DNA from: Clostridiales bacterium
Lineage (GTDB): Bacteria; Bacillota; Clostridia; Christensenellales; JAISNN01
Direction: 5' to 3'
NCBI GenBank assembly: GCA_031275485.1
Contig: JAISOS010000019.1
Span: 1 to 64,000, forward strand
DNA: 64,000 bases
Position 1 is the stretch's first letter; each line of letters opens with the position of its first letter. The notes below the pieces were generated by a model that saw only the letters and a program-made list of their open reading frames with translations, was not told the DNA's origin and made no database searches. Positions 16,588 through 33,323 of this stretch are shown here, in pieces. A program made the position numbers and the translations under genes.

Positions 16588-16621
16588 AAAGGGCTTAGGA
16601 GATTTTTCTCCTAAGCCCTTT
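16588..16621 (-). terminator. Rho-independent terminator of the 1532-aa gene
   Basis: perfect 15-bp stem AAAGGGCTTAGGAGA/TCTCCTAAGCCCTTT, 4-nt loop; minus-strand T-run follows. Confidence 0.85.
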
Positions 16622-16654: not shown

Positions 16655-19600
16655 TTACGTTCCCGTCAACTCGCCGACCGCCGCATTATACAACGCGGTA
16701 ATCGAAGCTTGAATGAGGCTACTCTCGCTTTCCGCTTTCGAAGCTTCCGCCGCTCTTAACGCAAAGCGGTAAATTATTTCGTCCTTAATCGGCTTGGTGC
16801 TCCCCGAAGCTCTTAAAGCGACTATAAGGCCCTCAATATCTGTTATATAAGCCGCATCCGCGCTCCGCGCCGCCGCGTCCGCCGCGTCGGTAAGATTCAG
16901 AGCCGCTCCCAAGAACACTTGCTCAACGGCGCTCAACGCGTCAAACGCGGTTCTCTCCTTTTCAACGGCTTCATAAGCGGCTTGTTTCAGCGCGTCGGCC
17001 GTTTCAGGAGTAACGGCAAGCGCGTCCGCGTAAAGAGCCTCTATTCTCGCGCCAACGTCCGCTTTTGTGATAAGAGCTTTTATGACCGCGTCCGTAGCCC
17101 CTAACGCGGCGTCATACGACTTCGCCGACTGTGCAATCGACGCGATCGACGCTACGGCTTTCTGATAATCCGTATTAAAGCAGGTCGCCGCGTCAGGCAA
17201 TCTATCCAATTGACTGTTCTCAACATTGCTTTTTGAACGGGTTTCCAAGATTCTGCGGGCTTCGTCGGCGGCCGCAATAATCTCTTTCGCTCTTATGCCG
17301 TCGGATTTTAGAATTGCCCAGACGCCCTCCCTAGCGTATTTAACGTCATTGTCATAATAGGCCTCCGAAGGATAGTTTCCGTCAATATAAGCCTGTACAT
17401 AGCCTTTGACATAACTTTCCGTGTACGGTTCAAAGGCTGTCCATATGGCGTTCGCCTCGTCGTTAGCCTCCGTTCCGGTATAGCCGGAGTCGTATGTTTT
17501 AGACCTGAACAATTCTTCTATCTCGGCTTTAAGGTCGTCCAAATCAGCAATATAATATATGTCGGCCGCTTGAACCTCGTCGTATTTTTTACCGACCCAA
17601 TATACCCATTCCTCTACGGTCGCGGCATAAACTTCCGTCTTCGCTTTATGCGTCAATTCGTCGGTTTCGGCGCCGATATCCTCAAGAAGCGACTCGACAA
17701 GCGCCTTATATTCCGCATAGCTTGCCGCCGACTCTACGCCCGACCCGCCGTCAAAGTATTTTGCGCCGCTCGCCGCGCCGTACCACTCGTCGTAATTGTA
17801 GCCGATATAGTCTACGTCGTTATCGTTCGCGTCCGGATCGTCGTCGTCGATTGTGTCGTAGAACGTTTTCACCGCGCCGGTTATTCTCGTTTCCGCCTCC
17901 GCAAAGTAGTCGGCGATTGTCTTGACGTTAATCGTTCCGTCAAGCAGTTCGCCTAAAAGACGTGTAGCTTCCTTATAGGAATCGACGTCGTCGATTTCAA
18001 ATGTGAAAACCTTACGGTATACGCCGTACAACCGCTCGTCCAGCTCTCTCGCGAAATCCGGCGCGTCTATCCACCAATCCGCCGACGGCACTTTTCCGTA
18101 GCTCGGATCGGTCAGATACCGCTCGGTTGTCGCCACCCAATTGTCATAAATCGCTTGCAGTATCGCCTTTTGGAGTTCGCCGATAGGCGCTTCTCCCGCT
18201 TTCACCTCTTTAGCTAGGTCATCTTCATATATTCTCTTAAATTCCGCGTCAAAATCCGCACGGGTAGTTTTTTTCAAAAGTTCCTCGTAGAACCAGCTGA
18301 AATTATAATTAGTTTCATAGTCATAATCCGCGTTGTCCGTAATCACCGTTTTAAATATTTCACGGGTTCTGTCGTTGACGTCTTTCACAGCGTTCTCTTG
18401 CGCTACGTCGATTTTATCAACCGCATAGAACATAGCGTCGATAGTTTGCATGACGGTATCTCCGTCGGCGGTCCCGTCGAGCTCCGAGAGATAATCGCGG
18501 ATACTACCTATTAATCCGGCTATGTCCTCCCGGAAGTATTCCCCGTACTCCGCCGTGCCAAAACCGTTATAGACGAACGTATACGTATATTCGTGATTGA
18601 CGAATTCGTCTATGAGCTCTTCGAACGCGTGCGTCCATCTGTATTTTAACAGGTCAAGCACGTAAGCCCCCGCTTCGTCGGTCAGCAATCCGCTTCCGTT
18701 AAGAACCGTATTTATCGCCTCTATTCTGTCCATATTAGAAACGTTCTCACCGTCAATAGCCGCGAACGGCTTCTCCGTTCTTGTCTCCGCGCGCTCCCAA
18801 CGGACAGGCTTGTTATCTTCGTCGTAAACCGTCTTATACAGCTCCATGCTCCACTCGTCGTCTCCGAACCATGCGGCGAACCATGCGTCGCGGTCGGTCT
18901 TGTCGCCGATATCCGTCTTCGGGCCGTTCCAATTTTCCTTAAAGAGATAGTCCCCGACGGAATCGTCGTATGAGTCCAAAGTGTTGTCCTTAGTATCGTA
19001 GTAGCTCTCCACCAATCCGGCTATAAGCTCTTTCAGCTCCTCATACGCCGCCTCGTCCATTTTCAAATCATAGTTCACGGCTTGCATACATCTATCATAG
19101 AACGCCTCGCCCAGCCGCGCGACCGTCGTTTCGTCGCTCTCCGTAATCGCGCCGAGATTATCGTAGGTTTGCGTGTCAAGCCAATCGATTAATTCGTCGT
19201 ACAAAGCGTCTATCTCGGTAGAGTCAAACAAAGGCATTCCCGTGAAGTCTATAGCTTTTATTTTGTCCGTCTCTATCGTCAATTTATCCGCCAGCGACTC
19301 TTTCGTAAGCCCGAATATAAACTCTTTAAAGCCGTCGGCTATCCCGCTATTCTCCGGATCGTAGACCTTCGCGAAAGCCTCCTCGTAAGCCTCTCTGCCG
19401 CCGTTTGCCGCGTCGTACAAATCTACGTAGTACGCGACGCCGTCGCCGTTGCCGTTGTCAAAGCCCGTTATGCCGTCGAACCACTTCCCGTAGCCTTCCT
19501 CAAAGCCCGCTTCGTTCATACGGTAACCGATAAACGCTATGTTATTTATATCCGCCGAGTCATACTTCGCGTTGTTGATTGTATTGTAATAGTCCGTAAT

Positions 19601-21253
19601 CAACCGCGCGACGGCGTTTTTCGTATACTCGGAATTAAACTCTAATGCCGCCAGCTTGCTTTTCGCCTCGGAATCGGCTTCCGTGCCGGTCGTTTTGGTC
19701 GTTCCGTCCCATTTCTCGTCTAAAGCGGTTTGACCGTATATAAGCTCGCCGAGCTCTTGTAACGCGGCGTCAAGCGCGACTTGATCGTAAGCGCGGGTCG
19801 CCGTAAGCGCGTCGTACTCGGCCCGTATCCAGCTCCACCAATAATCGGCGGCGGCTAAATAAACTTTGTCCTCCACTTCCGGTAGCAACGCGCCGTCTTC
19901 GTCAAGCGCATTCGCTCTCGCCGCGATAAAGGCGTCGTAGTCGCCCGCTCCGTCCGCCGCGACGATATCCGCAAACCACGTTTCATAGGTATAACCGATG
20001 AACGTTATATCGTCGTCTCCGTCATTGCCATCGTCGTCTATGCCGTCGTAATATTCTTTGATTTTGCCGTCGATAAGATCTTTGGTATCGGCTTGCTGTA
20101 CCGCTATCGTATCGATAGTTCCCAGTTCGTCGAGTTTGTCCTTAAATTGCGCGTACGTAATATCGTTGTACGAAGCGTTTTTCACAAAAGCGGCCAATTC
20201 GCCATAGTTATTCTCAACCTCTTTCGCGTAATATTCGCCGTTGCCCTTATACGAAGCGAATGCCTCATCGATCTCGGCCAGCCAATTCTCTTGAATAAGA
20301 CCCGTCTCGCCGCCCGCCGTTCCGAAAATCTCTTTCTTCATAAACTTCGTCAGGCTCTCGTCGCCGAGGTCTATGACTCTGAAAAGATTCAGGGTTAGTT
20401 CGCCGAGATTCTTAGCGCCGACTAAATCGATTATGAAATATTCGCTCTCTTCGCCCGCGTCGAACCAATTACCGTAGTCGTAATTAATATCTTTCGCGAG
20501 GTCTTCGTCCGTCGCGCTCGGATAAAAGCCTTGATAGAACTCCAAAACGGCGTTTTCTACGGCTTTCTGTATCCAGCCCTGAGCAAGAACGCTTTCCACG
20601 GCTTCCCTGTCGGCGTCCACGACGTCTTGGAATTTACCGTCGACGTAGTCTTGCAACGTGTCGCTCTGAGAATTCAACGAAGATACGATAAAGTCTTGCA
20701 ACGCGCTTTCCAGAGCCGGAATATCCGTATCTTTCAACGTGCCGAGCGTTGTTTTAAGCGTCGAAAGCTGCTCCGACAAGCCTTTTAAATATGTATTCAG
20801 CGGAATTTCCTCGTTACCCTCTCCCTCGAATACTATCTGCGATTCCAAATCGTCCAACCGATCCGTCAACGCCGATTCCAAATCGTCCAGCCGATCGTCC
20901 AATTCCGTCAACGCCTCGCTTAAACCGTCCAATTCCTCGTCCTTAAGACCGTCGATAAGACCGGTAATGTCTCTCTTTAAATCATTAATCTTAGAGAGCA
21001 ACGTATCGGTCAAATCGGAATTACCGGTCGCCACGTCGTCTTTTAGACCGCCCACATCGTCTTTCAGACCGTCCAACGTCCGCTGAATGTCGCTCATCGC
21101 TTGTTCAAGCAGATCGTTGCGTTTGACTTCCGTCGATACGAATACCGACAGCAAGACAAACGAAGCTACAAACACCGCCGACGATACAGCAATAGCTATA
21201 TTAATCAGCAACGCTTTCTTTGCCACAAAAAATGCCTTGATTTTACTCAACAT
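16655..21253 (-). CDS. Large acidic repeat protein, N-terminal signal anchor, coiled coil, repeated 'YYDTI..D..D.xxFIGYxYxxWF' modules
   Basis: 1532 aa; LLINIAIAVSSAVFVASFVLLSVFV TM segment; coiled coil LDDRLDDLESALTDRLDDLESQ; recurring modules; SD aaggag. Confidence 0.85.
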   Translation of the reverse strand: MLSKIKAFFVAKKALLINIAIAVSSAVFVASFVLLSVFVSTEVKRNDLLEQAMSDIQRTLDGLKDDVGGLKDDVATGNSDLTDTLLSKINDLKRDITGLIDGLKDEELDGLSEALTELDDRLDDLESALTDRLDDLESQIVFEGEGNEEIPLNTYLKGLSEQLSTLKTTLGTLKDTDIPALESALQDFIVSSLNSQSDTLQDYVDGKFQDVVDADREAVESVLAQGWIQKAVENAVLEFYQGFYPSATDEDLAKDINYDYGNWFDAGEESEYFIIDLVGAKNLGELTLNLFRVIDLGDESLTKFMKKEIFGTAGGETGLIQENWLAEIDEAFASYKGNGEYYAKEVENNYGELAAFVKNASYNDITYAQFKDKLDELGTIDTIAVQQADTKDLIDGKIKEYYDGIDDDGNDGDDDITFIGYTYETWFADIVAADGAGDYDAFIAARANALDEDGALLPEVEDKVYLAAADYWWSWIRAEYDALTATRAYDQVALDAALQELGELIYGQTALDEKWDGTTKTTGTEADSEAKSKLAALEFNSEYTKNAVARLITDYYNTINNAKYDSADINNIAFIGYRMNEAGFEEGYGKWFDGITGFDNGNGDGVAYYVDLYDAANGGREAYEEAFAKVYDPENSGIADGFKEFIFGLTKESLADKLTIETDKIKAIDFTGMPLFDSTEIDALYDELIDWLDTQTYDNLGAITESDETTVARLGEAFYDRCMQAVNYDLKMDEAAYEELKELIAGLVESYYDTKDNTLDSYDDSVGDYLFKENWNGPKTDIGDKTDRDAWFAAWFGDDEWSMELYKTVYDEDNKPVRWERAETRTEKPFAAIDGENVSNMDRIEAINTVLNGSGLLTDEAGAYVLDLLKYRWTHAFEELIDEFVNHEYTYTFVYNGFGTAEYGEYFREDIAGLIGSIRDYLSELDGTADGDTVMQTIDAMFYAVDKIDVAQENAVKDVNDRTREIFKTVITDNADYDYETNYNFSWFYEELLKKTTRADFDAEFKRIYEDDLAKEVKAGEAPIGELQKAILQAIYDNWVATTERYLTDPSYGKVPSADWWIDAPDFARELDERLYGVYRKVFTFEIDDVDSYKEATRLLGELLDGTINVKTIADYFAEAETRITGAVKTFYDTIDDDDPDANDNDVDYIGYNYDEWYGAASGAKYFDGGSGVESAASYAEYKALVESLLEDIGAETDELTHKAKTEVYAATVEEWVYWVGKKYDEVQAADIYYIADLDDLKAEIEELFRSKTYDSGYTGTEANDEANAIWTAFEPYTESYVKGYVQAYIDGNYPSEAYYDNDVKYAREGVWAILKSDGIRAKEIIAAADEARRILETRSKSNVENSQLDRLPDAATCFNTDYQKAVASIASIAQSAKSYDAALGATDAVIKALITKADVGARIEALYADALAVTPETADALKQAAYEAVEKERTAFDALSAVEQVFLGAALNLTDAADAAARSADAAYITDIEGLIVALRASGSTKPIKDEIIYRFALRAAEASKAESESSLIQASITALYNAAVGELTGT

Positions 21254-21364
21254 ATTTTTTTTACTCCTTATCCTTTTTGTTAAGTATTTTTATTTATGTT
21301 CGCCGTCCTTGTTCCGTTTTCCGAAATCCGATACGGTTATTTTTCCGCGTCCGTTTTTTACGCT

Positions 21365-21420
21365 AAAAGTTTTTATAAAGCAACGCGGAAGGCAACCTTA
21401 TTTTAAGGATTCCCCGCGTA
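21365..21420 (+). repeat. Dispersed palindromic element, F orientation, shortened stem
   Basis: aaaagtttttataaagcaacgcggaaggcaaccttattttaaggattccccgcgta. Confidence 0.65.
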
Positions 21421-21440
21421 AATTCTTAAAACAAAACCTT

Positions 21441-22259
21441 CTATTCCTCTTTTTTTCTGAATTCCGCAGGACGGCGCTCGCCGAAGTCGACGATTTTCAC
21501 CTCGCCGTCCGCTTTGTCGTATATTATCTCTTTACGCGTGTACGGATTATATTTCTTATCCCCGGGACTTACAAACGTTTTCTTTTTCTCACCGCCTATC
21601 TCGGCGGCGGCTTTCAAAAACAACTCGGCGGAAACGCCGTCCTCACGCAAATTCTCGCCCGAAACGGTCTTTTCTTTTTTGCTTTCCGCGTATTTCGCCG
21701 TCTTTTCCTTTTCGACCGCTTCGCGCGCCGATTTTTCCTTCTCCGCCGTTTCAACGGCGGTCTTTTCCCGCTTGCCGCCGTCGGACACGACAAAAACCGC
21801 ACCGTCGTCACGCGGAGCGTCCTTGAAACCGCTGTCGTCGATTATGTAAACGCCGTCGTCCGCCCGCTCGGCTGTGTCCGCCCGTTTCTCGCCGCCGTCC
21901 GCTACCGTCCTCCCGTCTCCCGCGATTCCGGCGCTTACGCTCTCGTCACCCCGGCTACCGATACGCGCCGAAAAAGCTTCCTCCGCGCCGTCCTTTTCCG
22001 CCTCGCCGGTCTTTTTCTTGCCGCGCTTCAACGACAGCAATGCGAAAAGCGCCGCCGCAGAAATCAGCATAAGACCGGAAAATAAAATCAACTGCCACCA
22101 GCCGCCAACCGCCGCGCCGAAAACTATGCCGGTTAAAGCTAAACTCACCGACCGCGCCGCGCCGCCTCCCGCAAAAACGAACGCTACGGCGGTAAAAACA
22201 GCCGCCGCAAAAATCGCCGGAATTAAATGATAACCGTTATTTTTGTTTGTTTTTTTCAT
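21441..22259 (-). CDS. Membrane protein with long charged cytoplasmic tail
   Basis: 272 aa; three hydrophobic segments then K/E/A-rich tail; SD gaggtaatt; immediately upstream of the 1532-aa gene. Confidence 0.75.
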   Translation of the reverse strand: MKKTNKNNGYHLIPAIFAAAVFTAVAFVFAGGGAARSVSLALTGIVFGAAVGGWWQLILFSGLMLISAAALFALLSLKRGKKKTGEAEKDGAEEAFSARIGSRGDESVSAGIAGDGRTVADGGEKRADTAERADDGVYIIDDSGFKDAPRDDGAVFVVSDGGKREKTAVETAEKEKSAREAVEKEKTAKYAESKKEKTVSGENLREDGVSAELFLKAAAEIGGEKKKTFVSPGDKKYNPYTRKEIIYDKADGEVKIVDFGERRPAEFRKKEE

Positions 22260-22825
22260 AATTACCTCATCGGCAGGTATTATTCGCCGCGCACGCCGAA
22301 CGATATAAAAAAGATGACCTAAATTTTTTCATTATATATAAGTATTATACCACAAATAAACAATAAGTCAAGCTATTAGCGAATAATTTAAAAATTTTTT
22401 TAACGGAAAACTAAATTGCGTTTTTTGGCTTTTTTGACAAAATTTCGCCCTTTTTTGCCTTTTTTTATGAGATTTTAAGCTAAAAACGGCTTAATTTTTT
22501 TAACATCTCGCGCTTTTACTTTTTTAAAAAAATGCAATTTTTTGTGTTTTGTTTTAAGCTCAACCACAAGCCGCATAAAAAAAATTAAAACGCGGTCACG
22601 CGAACGCGGATTTTTTTCCCCGCCGTTTCCGCAGATTTTTTGACGGTTTTTGTGAGTTTTTTTATGTTTCCCTCGATTTTTTCAGCGGTTTTAGAAAGAG
22701 CTACGAATTATTTATCCTTTTAGCGCGTTCCGTCATATATTATTGTATGAACGTTTTCTTAAATTACAGGAGCGGGCAACTCACGTTTAAAAAAGTAAAA
22801 AATTATATGGAGCGGCGGTTGAAAT

Positions 22826-24076
22826 ATGGAATTTGATAATTTACCGTTTTTGGAAAATATAAAAAATATGGCGAAAGAGTATAATTCGGTTTTAAAAAAG
22901 CCGCAAAGATACGCATGTATAAAACACGATTGCCCGCCGGCGTATTACGAACATATGGAGAAAATTTACGGGAAACAAAAACGCACGGAAAAATTTGACG
23001 AAACGCAAGGCGGCGGCGCGGACGGCTCTATTACGCAAAATAACGGAGTAAATAATTATTCACCGCAAAACGGAAACGGAAACTCCAACGGCTATATTCC
23101 GCAAAGCGGCGACACGGATAATTACACCCTGCAAAACGGAGCTCCCAACGGTTATATTCCGCAAAGCGACGGGATGAATTCAGGTTTTGATAACGGGGAG
23201 CTTGCCTATTTCGAGCCGGGCTTTTCGGGCGACATTGCGCGCGAAAACGCGGTTGCCGATTTTGAAAACCAATACGAACTTTCGGATTTGTTTTCAGAAT
23301 TGAGAGACTTCGGAAACCGCGACGGACGGGATATATTAGACGGCGACTTGTCAGAACCGCAAAATTTATACGGAACGCGAAGCCGCAGCGATGCGAATTC
23401 GGGAATTAATGCAAATGGAAATAATACATACAACGGCGCGAACACGGGAATAAATACGAATAATACTATAAACGGAAGCGGCGCCTACAACGACGGCAAG
23501 CCGGCTCAAAAGATTCCGCAAGGAAACGCACCTAACCATATTCAAGAGTATGCCGATATGACGTTCCGATACCCGAAAACGCAAGAAAGCTCCGCCGCCC
23601 GTGATTTTGAACGACAAATCGACGACTCGCAACAAATCGACGGAACGCGGCAAAATAACGGCGCGGAGAATAATAAAGATTATAGAGACTTAGCCGCGTT
23701 TACAAATACTTTAAAAAATATCCGTTTAATTCTGAACGACCAAGCGGCGCTACTTATATATATGCGCTCGCTGACGCCCGACCGCGTACTGCGCGAAAAA
23801 ATCGACGGCGCGCTGTCGATGAAAGAAAACGTGCTGAAAGATTCCGAACATATATACGCCGAGATCGGCGGCGCGGCGAATATATCCCGTCCGAATATAT
23901 CGCGCGGAGCATACGGGAACGCCTATAATATGCTGACGGCTTTACAAAATACGCTTGACCGGAATTTTGAGATTCTCGTAAACAATAATTTCAGCAAGAA
24001 TTATATGAACGGTCTTTCGGGAATGATTTCCTCCGAAAATAAATACCGTCTTTTGGCTACCGAATTGAAGCGATAA
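22826..24076 (+). CDS. Asn/Gln/Gly-rich low-complexity protein with helical C-terminal domain
   Basis: 416 aa; NGYIPQSGDTDNYTLQNGAPNGYIPQSDG; C-terminal ~130 aa predicted helical by eye. Confidence 0.75.
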   Translation: MEFDNLPFLENIKNMAKEYNSVLKKPQRYACIKHDCPPAYYEHMEKIYGKQKRTEKFDETQGGGADGSITQNNGVNNYSPQNGNGNSNGYIPQSGDTDNYTLQNGAPNGYIPQSDGMNSGFDNGELAYFEPGFSGDIARENAVADFENQYELSDLFSELRDFGNRDGRDILDGDLSEPQNLYGTRSRSDANSGINANGNNTYNGANTGINTNNTINGSGAYNDGKPAQKIPQGNAPNHIQEYADMTFRYPKTQESSAARDFERQIDDSQQIDGTRQNNGAENNKDYRDLAAFTNTLKNIRLILNDQAALLIYMRSLTPDRVLREKIDGALSMKENVLKDSEHIYAEIGGAANISRPNISRGAYGNAYNMLTALQNTLDRNFEILVNNNFSKNYMNGLSGMISSENKYRLLATELKR

Positions 24077-27786: not shown

Positions 27787-30700
27787 TTATTTGCGGTTAA
27801 TTACCTTATTAAAGGATTCGTACTGCGGTTTTTTATGCGCCTTAACCGACACGAGCTCCGGATTCGGTTTAGGCTTATTGACGATCGTAACGTTCTCCTC
27901 TTTGAGGCGCAGGATTCTCTTCCGCTCCGCCTCGAACTTCTCGGCGCGTCTTAAATCCGACGCTTTCTTTGCCGCAACGAACGCCGCTTGCGTTCTCTTT
28001 TCCTTGACTATGGCGGCGATCACCAGCGCGATACCGTAAGCGACGGCAACCGCTCCGGCGGCTTCCGCGACGTTCAGCGCCACGGCGAGCGCAAAGCTCT
28101 CGTATGCCGCCGACTCCGGCGAGCCCGTAACGTAATAATTTATAGCGTCGTCGCCCGTAAGCCTTATTTCAACCGTATAATCTCTGTAATTATTGACTTT
28201 TAGGGATAGGTCGGTCTGCCAATCCGACGTATTATTACCTTCCAAGACTCTGTACTCCGCCTCGTACCCGCCCGTATTGAGTACGGTAATAACGCCGTCC
28301 GTTCTCTCGACCTCGAAGGTCAAAGCCGCTTTTTCTATAGTGACGAAACCGACTCCGTTCACGACCTTATAATTCGCCGTCGCGGTAAGGTCGTCGACCG
28401 TATATTCCACAATATAGGTATAGGCGTATATTACGTCGCCCGCGGCTACCGGATCGCCCGTAGTTTCGTTTATTATTCTCTTAATAACTATGAGCGAATC
28501 CCAATCCACTCCGTCGTTCACTCCCGACACGACGCTTCTTTGGAGTACGTCCGTATGATCCTCCTTATCGAAAGTGAGCGTCGCGCTTCCTACGTCTATC
28601 GCTACTTCTCTCGGTTTAACCGACACCGTAATCGAAAAATCTTCGCATACGGCGTAGTTCTTGTCGTCCGGAATAAACGTAACCTTTATCGTGCCCTCAT
28701 ATTCTCCGACAGAATAATAGCCCGTCGAAATTTTATTTAAATATTCGCCGTCGGCAGACCAGTCGAGAGTTCCGGAAACAAGCTCCTTACCGAAATAGCC
28801 CTCTATGCCGTATCCCGACGCTTCGCCGGCGAACCTCTCTCCGTAAACCGCCTCGATTACCTGCTCGGTAGAGCTAATAACGAAAGGCTCGATCGTTCCC
28901 ATTCCCTTTGCGGCGACCGTCGCGCTAACCGCGCCCGACGCGTTCAGCTGGTAAAAATTCTTATATTCGCCGGACAGCACCACGCTCGCCACGATATCGA
29001 TACCCTCGCCCGCGTCGCTCTGCGAGAAGCGCATTCCGCTGACGGTATAAACGCCCGCGGCGGGCTGAACCTGCACGCTTGACCCGAAATCGTAGAAACC
29101 CTCGACTTGGAAGGTATAGCCCGATAAGCCTATGATCATATCCGTTCCGTCGTACGTCTTTACGACGGGCTGCGAAACCGTCAATTTCAACGTCTGTTTG
29201 CTCATCGCCCCGACGGTTTTTATCTCCGTATTTACCGGCATTATATAGTTTTTCGAAACGTCCGTATCGTCGCGATAAGCAACCGTAACCGTAACCGGCA
29301 TATTTTTTGTAAGCGTCGAGCTTTGATTAAAGCCGTCGTAGACCGCAGTAACCTCATATTCCCTGCCCGGGACGAAAGTCTGACCCGCGATTAGACCCGA
29401 TATGTTTAAAGTAACGTTCGCCGCGTCCGTTCCGTCGTATACTTTCGATATGCCGGAGGAGAGGGACGCCGAGAGCGGAATTTTTCTTATTTCCGCCGTT
29501 CCCGAGAGGGAGCCGGACGCCAAAACGTAGTTATCGGTTTTGGCGTTGCCTATGAGGGCGACGGCGCCGGACGCGCCGACCGTTCCGGCGTCCGGGCTTG
29601 CGAACGCGAGGTTCAAAACGGTAAAGTCCTCGTTTCTGTAAATCGTCTGACCGAATACCGCGCCGCTTAGCGTCACGGTCGCGGTCAGGTCGTCCGTAAG
29701 CGCGTTATAATCCTTCGGGTTCGGCGTAAACACCGCCGTCAGCTCTTTCCGCAGAACGTTAATTTTGACGGTCAGCGCGGTCGTAGTTGTGTAGTTGGAG
29801 TCGAGAGAAGTGAATGTCAGGTTCGTATATACCGTGCCGCTTACCGCGACAGTCGGTCTTTGCGGTATCTGCGCGACTCCCGCGCCCTGCGAAACGGTTC
29901 CGTTCGGTTTATCCCCAAAAAAGCCGGTTCCGGCGATTACGCTTACGCCCGCCAAAAACTCGTATCCGTATGTAACGGTCAAATCTTCCAGTCCCGAAAT
30001 TCTTCCCGGCGTAATTCTGCCGCCCGCCGTCGAAGTTCCCGTATTGACGCCGCCCGTGAAAGTGTGGTTGTATTCGCCGGTATAGAACGCGAAAGACGCG
30101 GTTATATAGTTGTTCGCCGTAACGACGTTCTTGTCCGCGAAGCGCGCTTCCGTAACGTAAAACAGGCTTGCCTGCGGCTGAACCTGCACGCCGCCCCCGT
30201 AGTAGCCGGAGAACGTCGCGGTAAAGACCGAGCCGTAGAGCCCCGTCGCGTCCGTCGTGCCGTCGTAGACCTTGCTCCCCGCCGCTATATTAACCGAGCT
30301 TACCGAAACGACCGCTCTTTGCACCGTAAACGGAACTACCGCGTATCCGACTGTAACGTCGTCGTTCGTATTGTTCGGCGTATTGCCCACGTCCTGACGC
30401 AAGGCGACGACATACTCGTAGCTCCCCGCCGCCGTAGGTCTCGCCGCGCCGAGCGCAAGCGCCACGCCGTCGTTACCCGACCCCCGGTATCGGCCCGTAT
30501 GCGAATTTATATGGTTAGCCGCGTTAAACGCCGACGCGTCGGCGTAAGCCGTGGGTCCCTGCGCCAGCCCGTCGTACGTCCATTGCGCGCCCCCGAGACT
30601 CGGCGTCGGCGTGGCCTTAAACGTCGCCGTAATGCTTACCGGTCCCGCTCCGCTAAACTTATAAAGAGCCAGGCTCGGCTTAGCCGCCCATTTGTAGGCG

Positions 30701-31896
30701 TCGTTTACCAGACCGGAGGTCTCCGAGGTCCACGCGTCCAGAATATAGCCTATATCTCCGCACGCCGTAACCTCGGCGCCGCCGCCTATGCCGGAAAGCT
30801 CCGCCGCCGTGGCGACGGCCTTCGCCGGAACGTACGTATTGCCGACCGTCCCGTTCGCCCCCGCCGAAACGTTAATCGCGGGAGTGTTGTAGGAGCCCTG
30901 AAGCTTCGTCGCCTCGATAACCGCCGCCGTCGTCGCCCAAGCGTAAGCCTGAGTTCCCGAACCGAAAAACGCCGCTCCTCCTTTGCCGTGCGCCGTGACT
31001 ACCAACTGGAGAAATATCTTTATTCCGATACCGCCGGTATTCGCCAAGTTTGTCAGCGTCGCGCCGTTCGCGGTGTAGCTCTCCGTAAAAATATATGTCT
31101 GACCGCTCTCCTGAGGGGTCCCGTTTGCCGGACTGTCGTTTATTACGACGCCGAAAGACGAAAGCCGATTTGTAGTCGCGGTGTCCGCGTATCCCGCGAG
31201 AGTCGAGTCTACCGCGTTGAAAAAGCCTCCGCTTGAGGTAATCGTCGCGGGACTCGAACCCGAGGTGCTACTCGCCCATTCGGTTCTCCAGTACGTGCGG
31301 AATTCTACGGTAAACGTCAGCGAGTTTACTCTTCCGTTTAAGATCGCCCTCTTCAGCTCTTCGCTGAACTTCATGCTGTAATTGATGCGCGCGTAAGACG
31401 TTACCGTCGCGGTTTTGGGGCTACCGGCGGAGAAACTTCCGTTACTACCCTGCGCGTCCGCTTGCTCTTTCGACTTCCCCGCGGCAACCTCCGCCGTCTT
31501 GGAGTCCGTCGCCAGATCGTCGCCCGGCGCGTTCGATTTGACGACGCCGCGCTGGGCTATATCCTGCCCCTGCGAATAACCCAAAGTATTCTCCAGACCG
31601 GGAGCGTCGTAATAACTCCTCGAAACGGTTTCGTCGGTTATCCCGAACGTATAGCTCGCCGTTTTCGTGTCTCCGGTCGAGCGCGAAGTCGTCCCGCTAG
31701 TCTCGGCGACTCCGCCGCCGTCCGCGTCCCCGCCTATGTCGATCGCCGAAACCTCCCCCCGCGCGCCGTATACGTCCGAGCCCGAGAGCCCGCCTCCGAA
31801 AACGCCCGCGAGACCGAAAAGCCCGCCCGCTCCAAAAGCGAACGTCAGCAGGCAAACCAATAATCTCAAACCTCCGCCGGTCTTTTTCATATTCAT
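27787..31896 (-). CDS. Large secreted/surface protein with YDG/MBG-type repeat domains, C-terminal TM helix and ~80-aa basic cytoplasmic tail
   Basis: SKVYDGTTDATGLYGS, SKVYDGTDAANVTLN, VKTYDGTDMIIGLSG; C-term VAVAYGIALVIAAIVKEKRT...; SD-supported start MNMKKTGGGL at 31896. Confidence 0.85.
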   Translation of the reverse strand: MNMKKTGGGLRLLVCLLTFAFGAGGLFGLAGVFGGGLSGSDVYGARGEVSAIDIGGDADGGGVAETSGTTSRSTGDTKTASYTFGITDETVSRSYYDAPGLENTLGYSQGQDIAQRGVVKSNAPGDDLATDSKTAEVAAGKSKEQADAQGSNGSFSAGSPKTATVTSYARINYSMKFSEELKRAILNGRVNSLTFTVEFRTYWRTEWASSTSGSSPATITSSGGFFNAVDSTLAGYADTATTNRLSSFGVVINDSPANGTPQESGQTYIFTESYTANGATLTNLANTGGIGIKIFLQLVVTAHGKGGAAFFGSGTQAYAWATTAAVIEATKLQGSYNTPAINVSAGANGTVGNTYVPAKAVATAAELSGIGGGAEVTACGDIGYILDAWTSETSGLVNDAYKWAAKPSLALYKFSGAGPVSITATFKATPTPSLGGAQWTYDGLAQGPTAYADASAFNAANHINSHTGRYRGSGNDGVALALGAARPTAAGSYEYVVALRQDVGNTPNNTNDDVTVGYAVVPFTVQRAVVSVSSVNIAAGSKVYDGTTDATGLYGSVFTATFSGYYGGGVQVQPQASLFYVTEARFADKNVVTANNYITASFAFYTGEYNHTFTGGVNTGTSTAGGRITPGRISGLEDLTVTYGYEFLAGVSVIAGTGFFGDKPNGTVSQGAGVAQIPQRPTVAVSGTVYTNLTFTSLDSNYTTTTALTVKINVLRKELTAVFTPNPKDYNALTDDLTATVTLSGAVFGQTIYRNEDFTVLNLAFASPDAGTVGASGAVALIGNAKTDNYVLASGSLSGTAEIRKIPLSASLSSGISKVYDGTDAANVTLNISGLIAGQTFVPGREYEVTAVYDGFNQSSTLTKNMPVTVTVAYRDDTDVSKNYIMPVNTEIKTVGAMSKQTLKLTVSQPVVKTYDGTDMIIGLSGYTFQVEGFYDFGSSVQVQPAAGVYTVSGMRFSQSDAGEGIDIVASVVLSGEYKNFYQLNASGAVSATVAAKGMGTIEPFVISSTEQVIEAVYGERFAGEASGYGIEGYFGKELVSGTLDWSADGEYLNKISTGYYSVGEYEGTIKVTFIPDDKNYAVCEDFSITVSVKPREVAIDVGSATLTFDKEDHTDVLQRSVVSGVNDGVDWDSLIVIKRIINETTGDPVAAGDVIYAYTYIVEYTVDDLTATANYKVVNGVGFVTIEKAALTFEVERTDGVITVLNTGGYEAEYRVLEGNNTSDWQTDLSLKVNNYRDYTVEIRLTGDDAINYYVTGSPESAAYESFALAVALNVAEAAGAVAVAYGIALVIAAIVKEKRTQAAFVAAKKASDLRRAEKFEAERKRILRLKEENVTIVNKPKPNPELVSVKAHKKPQYESFNKVINRK

Positions 31897-32351
31897 AATT
31901 TCTCTCCTTATCCGCATGAAAAATTATTTTTTTATATTTGAAAATATTTCAAACCCGTCTTTTTTAATATTTCCGTTATTTATTTCTATCGTTTCTATCG
32001 TTTCCGTTTCGAACGCGCCGTTTCGAAGCCCGTGTTCCGGAGTCCCGCTCCGGACGAATCTAAACGCGCCCCGAAAACTCCCTTTTTTCCGCCGCTTCCG
32101 ACCGCGAAGCCTTCTCCGCGTTTATAACCTTATATCTAATTCCCGTCCGGCGCTTTCCGCGTATCCCGCGCCCGTTTTTTTGACCGAAAACCGCGTTTTT
32201 GACCGCGAAAAACGAAAAACGGCGCAAACTGCCCGATAATTCTATTCTCGTATGACTATTATATATCATAAATTTCAACTTGTCAATACCCATTTGAAAA
32301 AAAGTCATAAAAAATTTAAATTTCTTTTTTCGGAAAAATTTTTTTAAAAAA

Positions 32352-32737
32352 ATACGCGGGGGAAACCTTTTGTGAACGAAAGGCTTTCCCCCGCGCCCCC
32401 TTCCAAAAAACTTTAATATTATTTGCCGCGCCGTATAAACGGTAAACGCCGCGCTTTCTTTGTGAAAGGGGGGAATTTTTTTTAAAACATACGCGGGAGA
32501 AACCTTTTGTGAACGAAAAGGTTTCCCCCGCGCCCCTTTCCAAAAAACTTTAATACTATTTGCCGCGCCGTATAAACGGTAAACGCCGCGCTTTCTTTGT
32601 GAAAGGGGGGAATTTTTTTAAAACATACGCGGGGGAGAAACCTTTTGTGAACGAAAAGGTTTCCCCCGCACCCCCTTCCAAAAAACTTTAATATTATTTG
32701 CCGCGCCGTATAAACGGTAAACGCCGCGCTTTCTTTT
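32352..32737 (-). repeat. Tandem array: two full ~137-bp units and one partial, each carrying one dispersed palindromic element
   Basis: tacgcggg begins at 32353, 32490, 32626; shared tail 'tatttgccgcgccgtataaacggtaaacgccgcgctttcttt'. Confidence 0.95.
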
Positions 32738-33140: not shown

Positions 33141-33323
33141 TAATAAATTGCGCTTTAAAGCCGCGTATATACGTATATAAATGTTTGCGGATACACCTAA
33201 AAACAGAACCAGCATAATAAATTACGCTTTAAAAACCGCGTATATACGTATATAAATGTTTGCGGATACACCTAAAAACAGAACCGGCATAATAAATTAC
33301 GCTTTAAAAGCCGCGTATATAAA
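33141..33323. repeat. Tandem repeat, ~2.4 copies of a 74-75-bp unit
   Basis: taataaatt(g/a)cgctttaaa..ccgcgtatatacgtatataaatgtttgcggatacacctaaaaacagaacc(a/g)gca at 33141, 33215, 33290. Confidence 0.95.

What the first reader, a model, noticed from the sequence alone, without database searches (positions are those of the whole stretch)
16655..22259. Giant acidic repeat protein with an unrecognised ~200-aa repeat module, paired with a membrane partner
The 1532-aa protein has a signal anchor, an N-terminal coiled coil, then recurring modules with motifs such as IKEYYDGIDDDGNDGDDDITFIGYTYETWF, ITDYYNTI..DINNIAFIGYRM..GKWFDG and VKTFYDTIDDDDPDANDNDVDYIGYNYDEWYG, each followed by helices with W..W....YD. 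I do not recognise the module as a named domain. It is directly preceded in the same orientation by a 272-aa membrane protein with a charged cytoplasmic tail, suggesting a two-gene surface assembly. The Asp-rich loops could bind Ca2+.
Basis: partly seen in the sequence, partly recalled or inferred. Interest (0 to 1): 0.65.

Follow-up and report, generated by a model that had tools for sequence, protein, structure and literature searches.

The report
Membrane-anchored surface fibre with new repeat
A gut Clostridia genus known so far from termites carries a giant acidic protein, built from six copies of a protein module that matches no known family or solved structure, which is probably a surface fibre tied through the membrane to a dedicated partner protein; its function is not proven.

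Summary
The 1532-aa protein has an N-terminal membrane anchor, a coiled-coil stalk, six tandem ~155-195-aa modules and a helical C-terminus. Self-alignment and shuffle Z-scores confirm the repeats. No module matches Pfam or a PDB sequence. AlphaFold2 gives a confident mainly helical domain (pLDDT 87, pTM 0.83; tandem pair 84.5/0.73) with no match in the PDB (best E 0.72) or BFVD. Among 396 genomes of the order and 399 of the phylum, the module occurs convincingly only in the window's own genus (3 of 6 held genomes). Two of the relatives are MAGs in an accession block deposited from termite guts. The partner gene is upstream in all three. It has conserved ends joined by a charged tail of very variable length; a third cytosolic gene lies divergently in three genomes. 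A paralogue in one species joins the module to Listeria-Bacteroides repeats behind a different anchor, so the module is very probably extracellular. Best reading: a membrane-anchored surface fibre whose transmembrane helix pairs with the partner, which carries a cytoplasmic docking tail. Binding target and partner contact are inferred. Calcium binding is not supported by any known motif. New orphan domain family in a known kind of architecture.

The parts
16655..21253 (-). 1532-aa acidic membrane-anchored repeat protein (big protein)
   Evidence: net charge -182, 20.6% D+E; homologues in G001 and G004
21113..21253 (-). N-terminal uncleaved signal anchor (residues 1-47), the best conserved part of the protein, with an invariant Asn in the transmembrane helix
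   Evidence: 30/47 identical to G004 against 394/1390 for the rest; A10 alignment; strong matches only in the three big proteins among 61 genomes
20819..21121 (-). predicted coiled-coil stalk (about residues 45-145)
   Evidence: weak hits to coiled-coil Pfam and NCBIfam models at residues 49-146; repetitive self-alignment
20090..20572 (-). module 1 (residues 228-388)
   Evidence: reciprocal best match of G004 module 1, Z 12.0; AF2 tandem model
19634..20095 (-). module 2 (residues 387-540), IKEYYDGIDDDGNDGDDDITFIGYTYETWF
   Evidence: Z 17.7 to G004 module 2 and 15.1 to module 6; AF2 tandem model
19094..19636 (-). module 3 (residues 540-720), ITDYYNTI..FIGYRM..GKWF
   Evidence: best match of G004 module 3, Z 5.0
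18479..19048 (-). module 4 (residues 736-925), strongly diverged
   Evidence: reciprocal best match of G004 module 4, Z 11.8; weak in the self-profile
17897..18478 (-). module 5 (residues 926-1119), diverged
   Evidence: Z 6.0-7.2 to modules of G001
17408..17908 (-). module 6 (residues 1116-1282), VKTFYDTIDDDDPDANDNDVDYIGYNYDEWYG; the module modelled by AF2
   Evidence: pLDDT 86.7, pTM 0.83
16655..17407 (-). C-terminal region, not a module (residues 1283-1532)
   Evidence: no module match; aligned to G004 up to residue 1447
21441..22259 (-). 272-aa partner: two hydrophobic segments, charged cytoplasmic tail
   Evidence: homologues in G001, G004 and, N-terminal part only, G002
22155..22235 (-). 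partner hydrophobic segment 1 (residues 9-35)
22026..22103 (-). partner hydrophobic segment 2 (residues 53-78), followed by KRGKKK
21444..21551 (-). conserved C-terminal tail motif of the partner, YNPYxRKExIYxKxxxEVxIVxxGxYxPxxF
   Evidence: 14 invariant positions in three sequences; strong matches only in the three partners among 101 genomes, next best E 0.025
22344..22371 (-). promoter-like site upstream of the partner: TTGACT-16-TATAAT with extended -10, 11 of 12
   Evidence: consensus match only
22265..22268 (-). Shine-Dalgarno-like GAGG of the partner
   Evidence: direct reading
21264..21267 (-). Shine-Dalgarno-like GGAG of the big gene
   Evidence: direct reading
16588..16621 (-). intrinsic-terminator-like hairpin (15 pairs) after the big gene
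22826..24076 (+). divergent third gene, 416 aa: conserved N-terminus MEFDNLPFLENIKNMAKEYN, N/G-rich middle, helical C-terminus, no membrane segment
   Evidence: next to the partner in the window, G004 and G002, on another contig in G001

Best explanation
The locus encodes a membrane-anchored surface fibre. The big protein is held by its N-terminal helix with the N-terminus inside. A coiled-coil stalk and six tandem helical modules with a probably new fold project outwards as an acidic rod of about 1,480 residues. The partner, probably made from the same transcription unit, sits in the membrane beside the anchor and carries a charged cytoplasmic tail of variable length ending in a conserved docking motif, so the pair would link the outer fibre to something inside the cell, perhaps the product of the divergent third gene. 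Its likely job is attachment or spacing at the cell surface in the insect gut (symbiont, protist, wood particle or gut wall). Shown: the repeats, lack of a known family, gene pairing, conserved anchor and tail, confident predicted fold. Inferred: export, anchor-partner contact, binding target.
For: Repeats. Long anchor with positively charged inner side. Partner segments followed by KRGKKK, RFKKK, RIRAVDYRK or QKKK in all four homologues, placing the tail inside by the positive-inside rule. Pair present together in G000, G001 and G004 and neither found in G003 and G005. The anchor is more conserved (64%) than the rest (28%) and occurs only in the three big proteins that have a partner; the G001 paralogue at C107 has another anchor and a peptidase-like gene, not a partner, beside it. 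That paralogue carries four Listeria-Bacteroides repeats (PF09479, E 3.4e-39), a surface-protein domain, fused to the same module. Promoter-like site, ribosome-binding sites and a terminator frame both genes. Modules 1-4 of the window and G004 correspond in order, so individual modules are kept under their own constraint. AF2 models of one and two modules are confident.
Against: Nothing shows export, expression or binding directly. There is no cell-wall anchor motif (LPxTG) or lipobox. In G004 a 1.1-kb gap full of tandem repeats separates the two genes, so co-transcription there is uncertain. Co-occurrence rests on six genomes, and the pattern could reflect their family tree. G002 is 69% complete and its contig ends inside the partner.
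Confidence: 0.6

Rival explanations
1. Stand-alone surface protein: the big protein is displayed by its own anchor, and the partner is a neighbour with a separate role (for example a membrane-shape or division factor), not part of one complex.
For: The module also occurs without the partner in the G001 paralogue. The genes are 1.1 kb apart in G004.
Against: The pair keeps order and orientation in three divergent genomes, and the specific anchor is found only with the partner.
Confidence: 0.2
2. Transmembrane sensor: the modules bind a ligand outside and the partner's tail passes the signal to a cytosolic protein, perhaps the third gene product.
For: Conserved short tail motif on a spacer of variable length, and a conserved divergent cytosolic gene.
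Against: No kinase, anti-sigma, cyclase or other signalling domain in any of the three proteins.
Confidence: 0.1
3. Envelope layer or matrix protein (S-layer-like): the modules assemble side by side into a coat rather than single fibres.
For: Large acidic repeat protein with few Cys.
Against: The protein is tied to the membrane by an anchor and a long coiled coil. No S-layer homology or other cell-wall-binding Pfam domain was found. Found in only half of the held genomes of the genus, unlike a basic coat.
Confidence: 0.07
4. Phage structural gene, such as a tape-measure or fibre protein from a prophage.
For: Long helical protein with coiled coil; one weak sequence match to a phage short tail fibre in the coiled coil only (E 0.26).
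Against: Window neighbours are housekeeping genes; no hit in phages, viral contigs or BFVD; native-like codon composition.
Confidence: 0.02

Closest known systems
Listeria-Bacteroides repeat (InlB B-repeat, PF09479) surface proteins
   Same: Giant modular surface proteins abundant in this genus (24-75 matches per genome); the G001 paralogue fuses these repeats to the new module.
   Different: The window protein has no PF09479 match, and the modelled module is mainly helical.
Staphylococcal Ebh/EbhA giant helical-repeat surface protein (FIVAR/GA modules)
   Same: Long chain of tandem helical modules on a Gram-positive surface (established knowledge).
   Different: No FIVAR or GA Pfam match. EbhA 2dgj appears only at chance level (E 3.4, TM 0.20-0.23). 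The modules here are longer.
TolA/TonB-type proteins (membrane segment plus long charged helical spacer plus end domain)
   Same: The partner has membrane segments, a KAE-rich spacer of variable length with an 11-residue period in G004 (33-bp units), and a conserved end.
   Different: The tail is predicted to be cytoplasmic by charge, and no TolA or TonB family match was found.
EF-hand, dockerin or RTX calcium-binding modules
   Same: Asp/Asn-rich loops.
   Different: No such motif in the window protein and no Pfam match.

Membership tests
Listeria-Bacteroides repeat (PF09479) | Match to the PF09479 model in the window protein | tested here: not met
   no match up to E 1
Ebh-type FIVAR/GA repeat protein | Match to the FIVAR or GA Pfam models | tested here: not met
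   neither listed for the protein or any of 14 modules
Ebh-type FIVAR/GA repeat protein | Fold similarity to solved EbhA | tested here: not met
   2dgj E 3.4, TM 0.20-0.23; absent from the single-module search
Sortase-anchored (LPxTG) surface protein | LPxTG motif | tested here: not met
   none in three homologues
SLH-anchored S-layer protein | SLH domains (PF00395) | tested here: not met
   no SLH match
EF-hand, dockerin or RTX calcium-binding protein | Canonical calcium-loop motif | tested here: not met
   no DxDxDG-type or GGxGxD motif in the window protein; G004 has two isolated DxDxDG-like matches
EF-hand, dockerin or RTX calcium-binding protein | Measured calcium binding | not testable with these tools
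   needs protein
Membrane-anchored modular surface protein (architectural class) | N-terminal anchor with N-terminus inside | tested here: met
   (sequence-based topology)
Membrane-anchored modular surface protein (architectural class) | Tandem extracellular modules | tested here: met
   tandem; extracellular supported by the PF09479 fusion, not measured
Membrane-anchored modular surface protein (architectural class) | Exposure on the cell surface | not testable with these tools
   needs cells

The most novel reading that the evidence does not exclude
The module is a new protein fold that arose or survives in one genus of gut Clostridia, and with its partner forms a previously unknown transmembrane system that couples an outer fibre to the inside of the cell, with the charged partner tail acting as a length-variable spacer to a docking motif.
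Probability: 0.25. Interest if true: 0.75.

Novelty: new variant of a known kind. Interest (0 to 1): 0.48.

Why it matters
Surface proteins decide how gut symbionts hold on to hosts, protists or wood, and those of uncultured termite-gut Clostridia are almost unstudied. Here is a defined module with a confident predicted fold that matches no family or solved structure, plus a co-conserved membrane partner that offers a testable link to the inside of the cell. If it holds, it adds a new domain family, probably a new fold, and a lineage-specific surface apparatus.

Tried and rejected
Pfam and NCBIfam on whole proteins and Pfam on each of 14 modules: no real match. PDB by sequence: only designed helical bundles and other weak matches. 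Fold searches of the single module (PDB, BFVD) and the tandem pair (PDB): nothing significant. First genome-contig scan with the single protein: nothing; the second, with a three-sequence alignment, found two named records. Viral contigs, plasmids, phages: nothing. Weak module hits in six other genomes of the order (E 0.002-0.006, short pieces) taken as chance. Weak partner hits in G003 and G005 (E 0.02-0.04): G005 is a different surface protein, and in G003 no listed ORF over 150 aa at the hit resembles the partner. Iterating the module profile beyond two rounds merged modules into whole-protein matches and was discarded. A three-module alignment lined up overlapping rows with themselves and was not used for folding. 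Paper searches for the isolate codes found nothing; habitat was settled by accession range.

Full report
OBSERVATION. The two ORFs are where the finding puts them: a 1532-aa protein at 16655-21253 (-) and a 272-aa protein at 21441-22259 (-), 187 nt upstream. Codon-position GC of both is like that of neighbouring housekeeping genes. Self Smith-Waterman gives a 425-column alignment of residues 177-566 with 910-1302 at score 206. A profile seeded on four clear modules and iterated once finds six modules in the window protein, six in the G004 homologue and three in the G001 homologue. Shuffle Z-scores between modules reach 15 inside the window protein and 25 inside G001. The unit is ~155-195 aa. 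The DDD loop is clear in modules 2 and 6 only.

ANATOMY. Residues 1-47 form an anchor with four Lys on the inner side and a hydrophobic stretch far longer than an ordinary signal peptide; it is 64% identical to G004, against 28% for the rest. A coiled-coil stalk follows (about 45-145, weak coiled-coil model hits), then modules 1-6 (228-1282) and a C-terminal region. The partner has two hydrophobic segments and then a charged tail. In all four homologues the last hydrophobic segment is followed by basic residues, so the tail is most likely cytoplasmic. The tail varies from ~190 to ~570 residues, in G004 through 33-bp (11-residue) and 36-bp repeats, while the last 36 residues are conserved (14 invariant positions).

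EXPRESSION UNIT. A strong sigma-70-like site with extended -10 lies 85 nt upstream of the partner start, both genes have Shine-Dalgarno-like sequences, and a 15-pair terminator-like hairpin lies 34 nt after the big gene. In G004 the genes are separated by a 1.1-kb tandem-repeat array with no credible gene, so co-transcription is not universal.

RELATIVES AND RANGE. Among 396 genomes of the order and 399 of the phylum, convincing module matches occur only in the window's genus, in three of six held genomes. Both prefixes fall in the block JAIRJQ-JAITXW deposited with a termite-gut MAG study (PMC11257099). That the window's own MAG is also from a termite is inferred from genus. Plasmid, phage and viral collections have no match.

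GENE NEIGHBOURHOOD. Partner plus big gene occur in the same order in the window, G004 (L017) and G001 (L016). A third gene, cytosolic by sequence, lies divergently beside the partner in the window, G004 and G002; in G001 it is on another contig. In G002 the contig ends inside the partner, so the big gene there cannot be judged. G003 (93% complete) and G005 (84%) show none of the three. Six genomes are too few to exclude shared ancestry as the cause.

MODULE REUSE. G001 carries a paralogue at C107 (L052) in which four Listeria-Bacteroides repeats (PF09479, E 3.4e-39) precede two modules behind a different anchor, with a peptidase-like gene beside it and no partner. This places the module among surface domains and ties the partner to the specific anchor, which is found nowhere else in 61 genomes at comparable score.

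MODULE EVOLUTION. Window modules 1, 2 and 4 and G004 modules 1, 2 and 4 are reciprocal best matches; G004 module 3 best matches window module 3. Even the degenerate module 4 is kept. The three G001 modules are recent duplicates of each other. So an ordered array predates the split of the window and G004 species, while G001 rebuilt its own.

FOLD. AF2 with the 14-module alignment gives module 6 at pLDDT 86.7 and pTM 0.83: a mainly helical domain with long helices at 2-20 and 87-114 and a small hairpin at 75-85. The tandem model of modules 1-2 gives 84.5 and 0.73 with the same general series of elements in both. The acidic loop is among the least certain parts. Foldseek finds nothing at E below 0.7 in the PDB, or below 1.1 in BFVD. 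AlphaFold DB was not on hand, so 'new fold' means no solved relative.

MECHANISM. The simplest account is a membrane-anchored fibre displayed outside, with the partner's membrane segments packing against the unusually conserved anchor helix (invariant Asn inside the helix) and its tail reaching into the cytoplasm to a docking target. Tail length varies freely while its end does not, as expected of a tether. Attachment or spacing at the cell surface is the likely role. Export, contact and target are inferences.

CALCIUM. No EF-hand-like, dockerin-like or RTX-like motif occurs in the window protein, and several modules lack the acidic loop. Calcium binding remains possible for modules 2 and 6 but has no positive support.

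VERDICT. Confirmed observation; a new orphan domain family, probably with a new fold, in a known kind of architecture; function inferred.

Noticed in passing
window 27787-31917 (-): 1376-aa surface-type protein with weak YDG-domain matches and, by direct reading, a C-terminal hydrophobic segment followed by a basic tail; another membrane-tethered giant with a cytoplasmic tail close to this locus.
   Followed up: no
window 22826-24076 (+): Family of proteins with a nearly invariant N-terminus (MEFDNLPFLENIKNMAKEYN), N/G/Q-rich disordered middle and helical C-terminus, found in 4 of 6 genomes of the genus and in none of the other relatives searched; no Pfam match.
   Followed up: partly
L052 2-1657 (-): Paralogue with four PF09479 repeats joined to the new module, cut by the contig end.
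   Followed up: yes
L017 9523-10506: Array of ~122-bp tandem repeats (about 94-96% alike) between partner and big gene in G004.
   Followed up: no
window 32337-32736 and 33141-33321: Intergenic tandem repeats of 137 bp x 2.9 and 75 bp x 2.4, about 95% alike.
   Followed up: no
genomes G000-G005: 23 to 75 PF09479 matches per genome throughout the genus, against none in 14 control genomes: a very rich surface-repeat repertoire.
   Followed up: no
L017 10944-11517: 33-bp repeats (17 copies) encode an 11-residue KAE-rich period in the partner tail, suggesting a long straight helix of adjustable length.
   Followed up: partly
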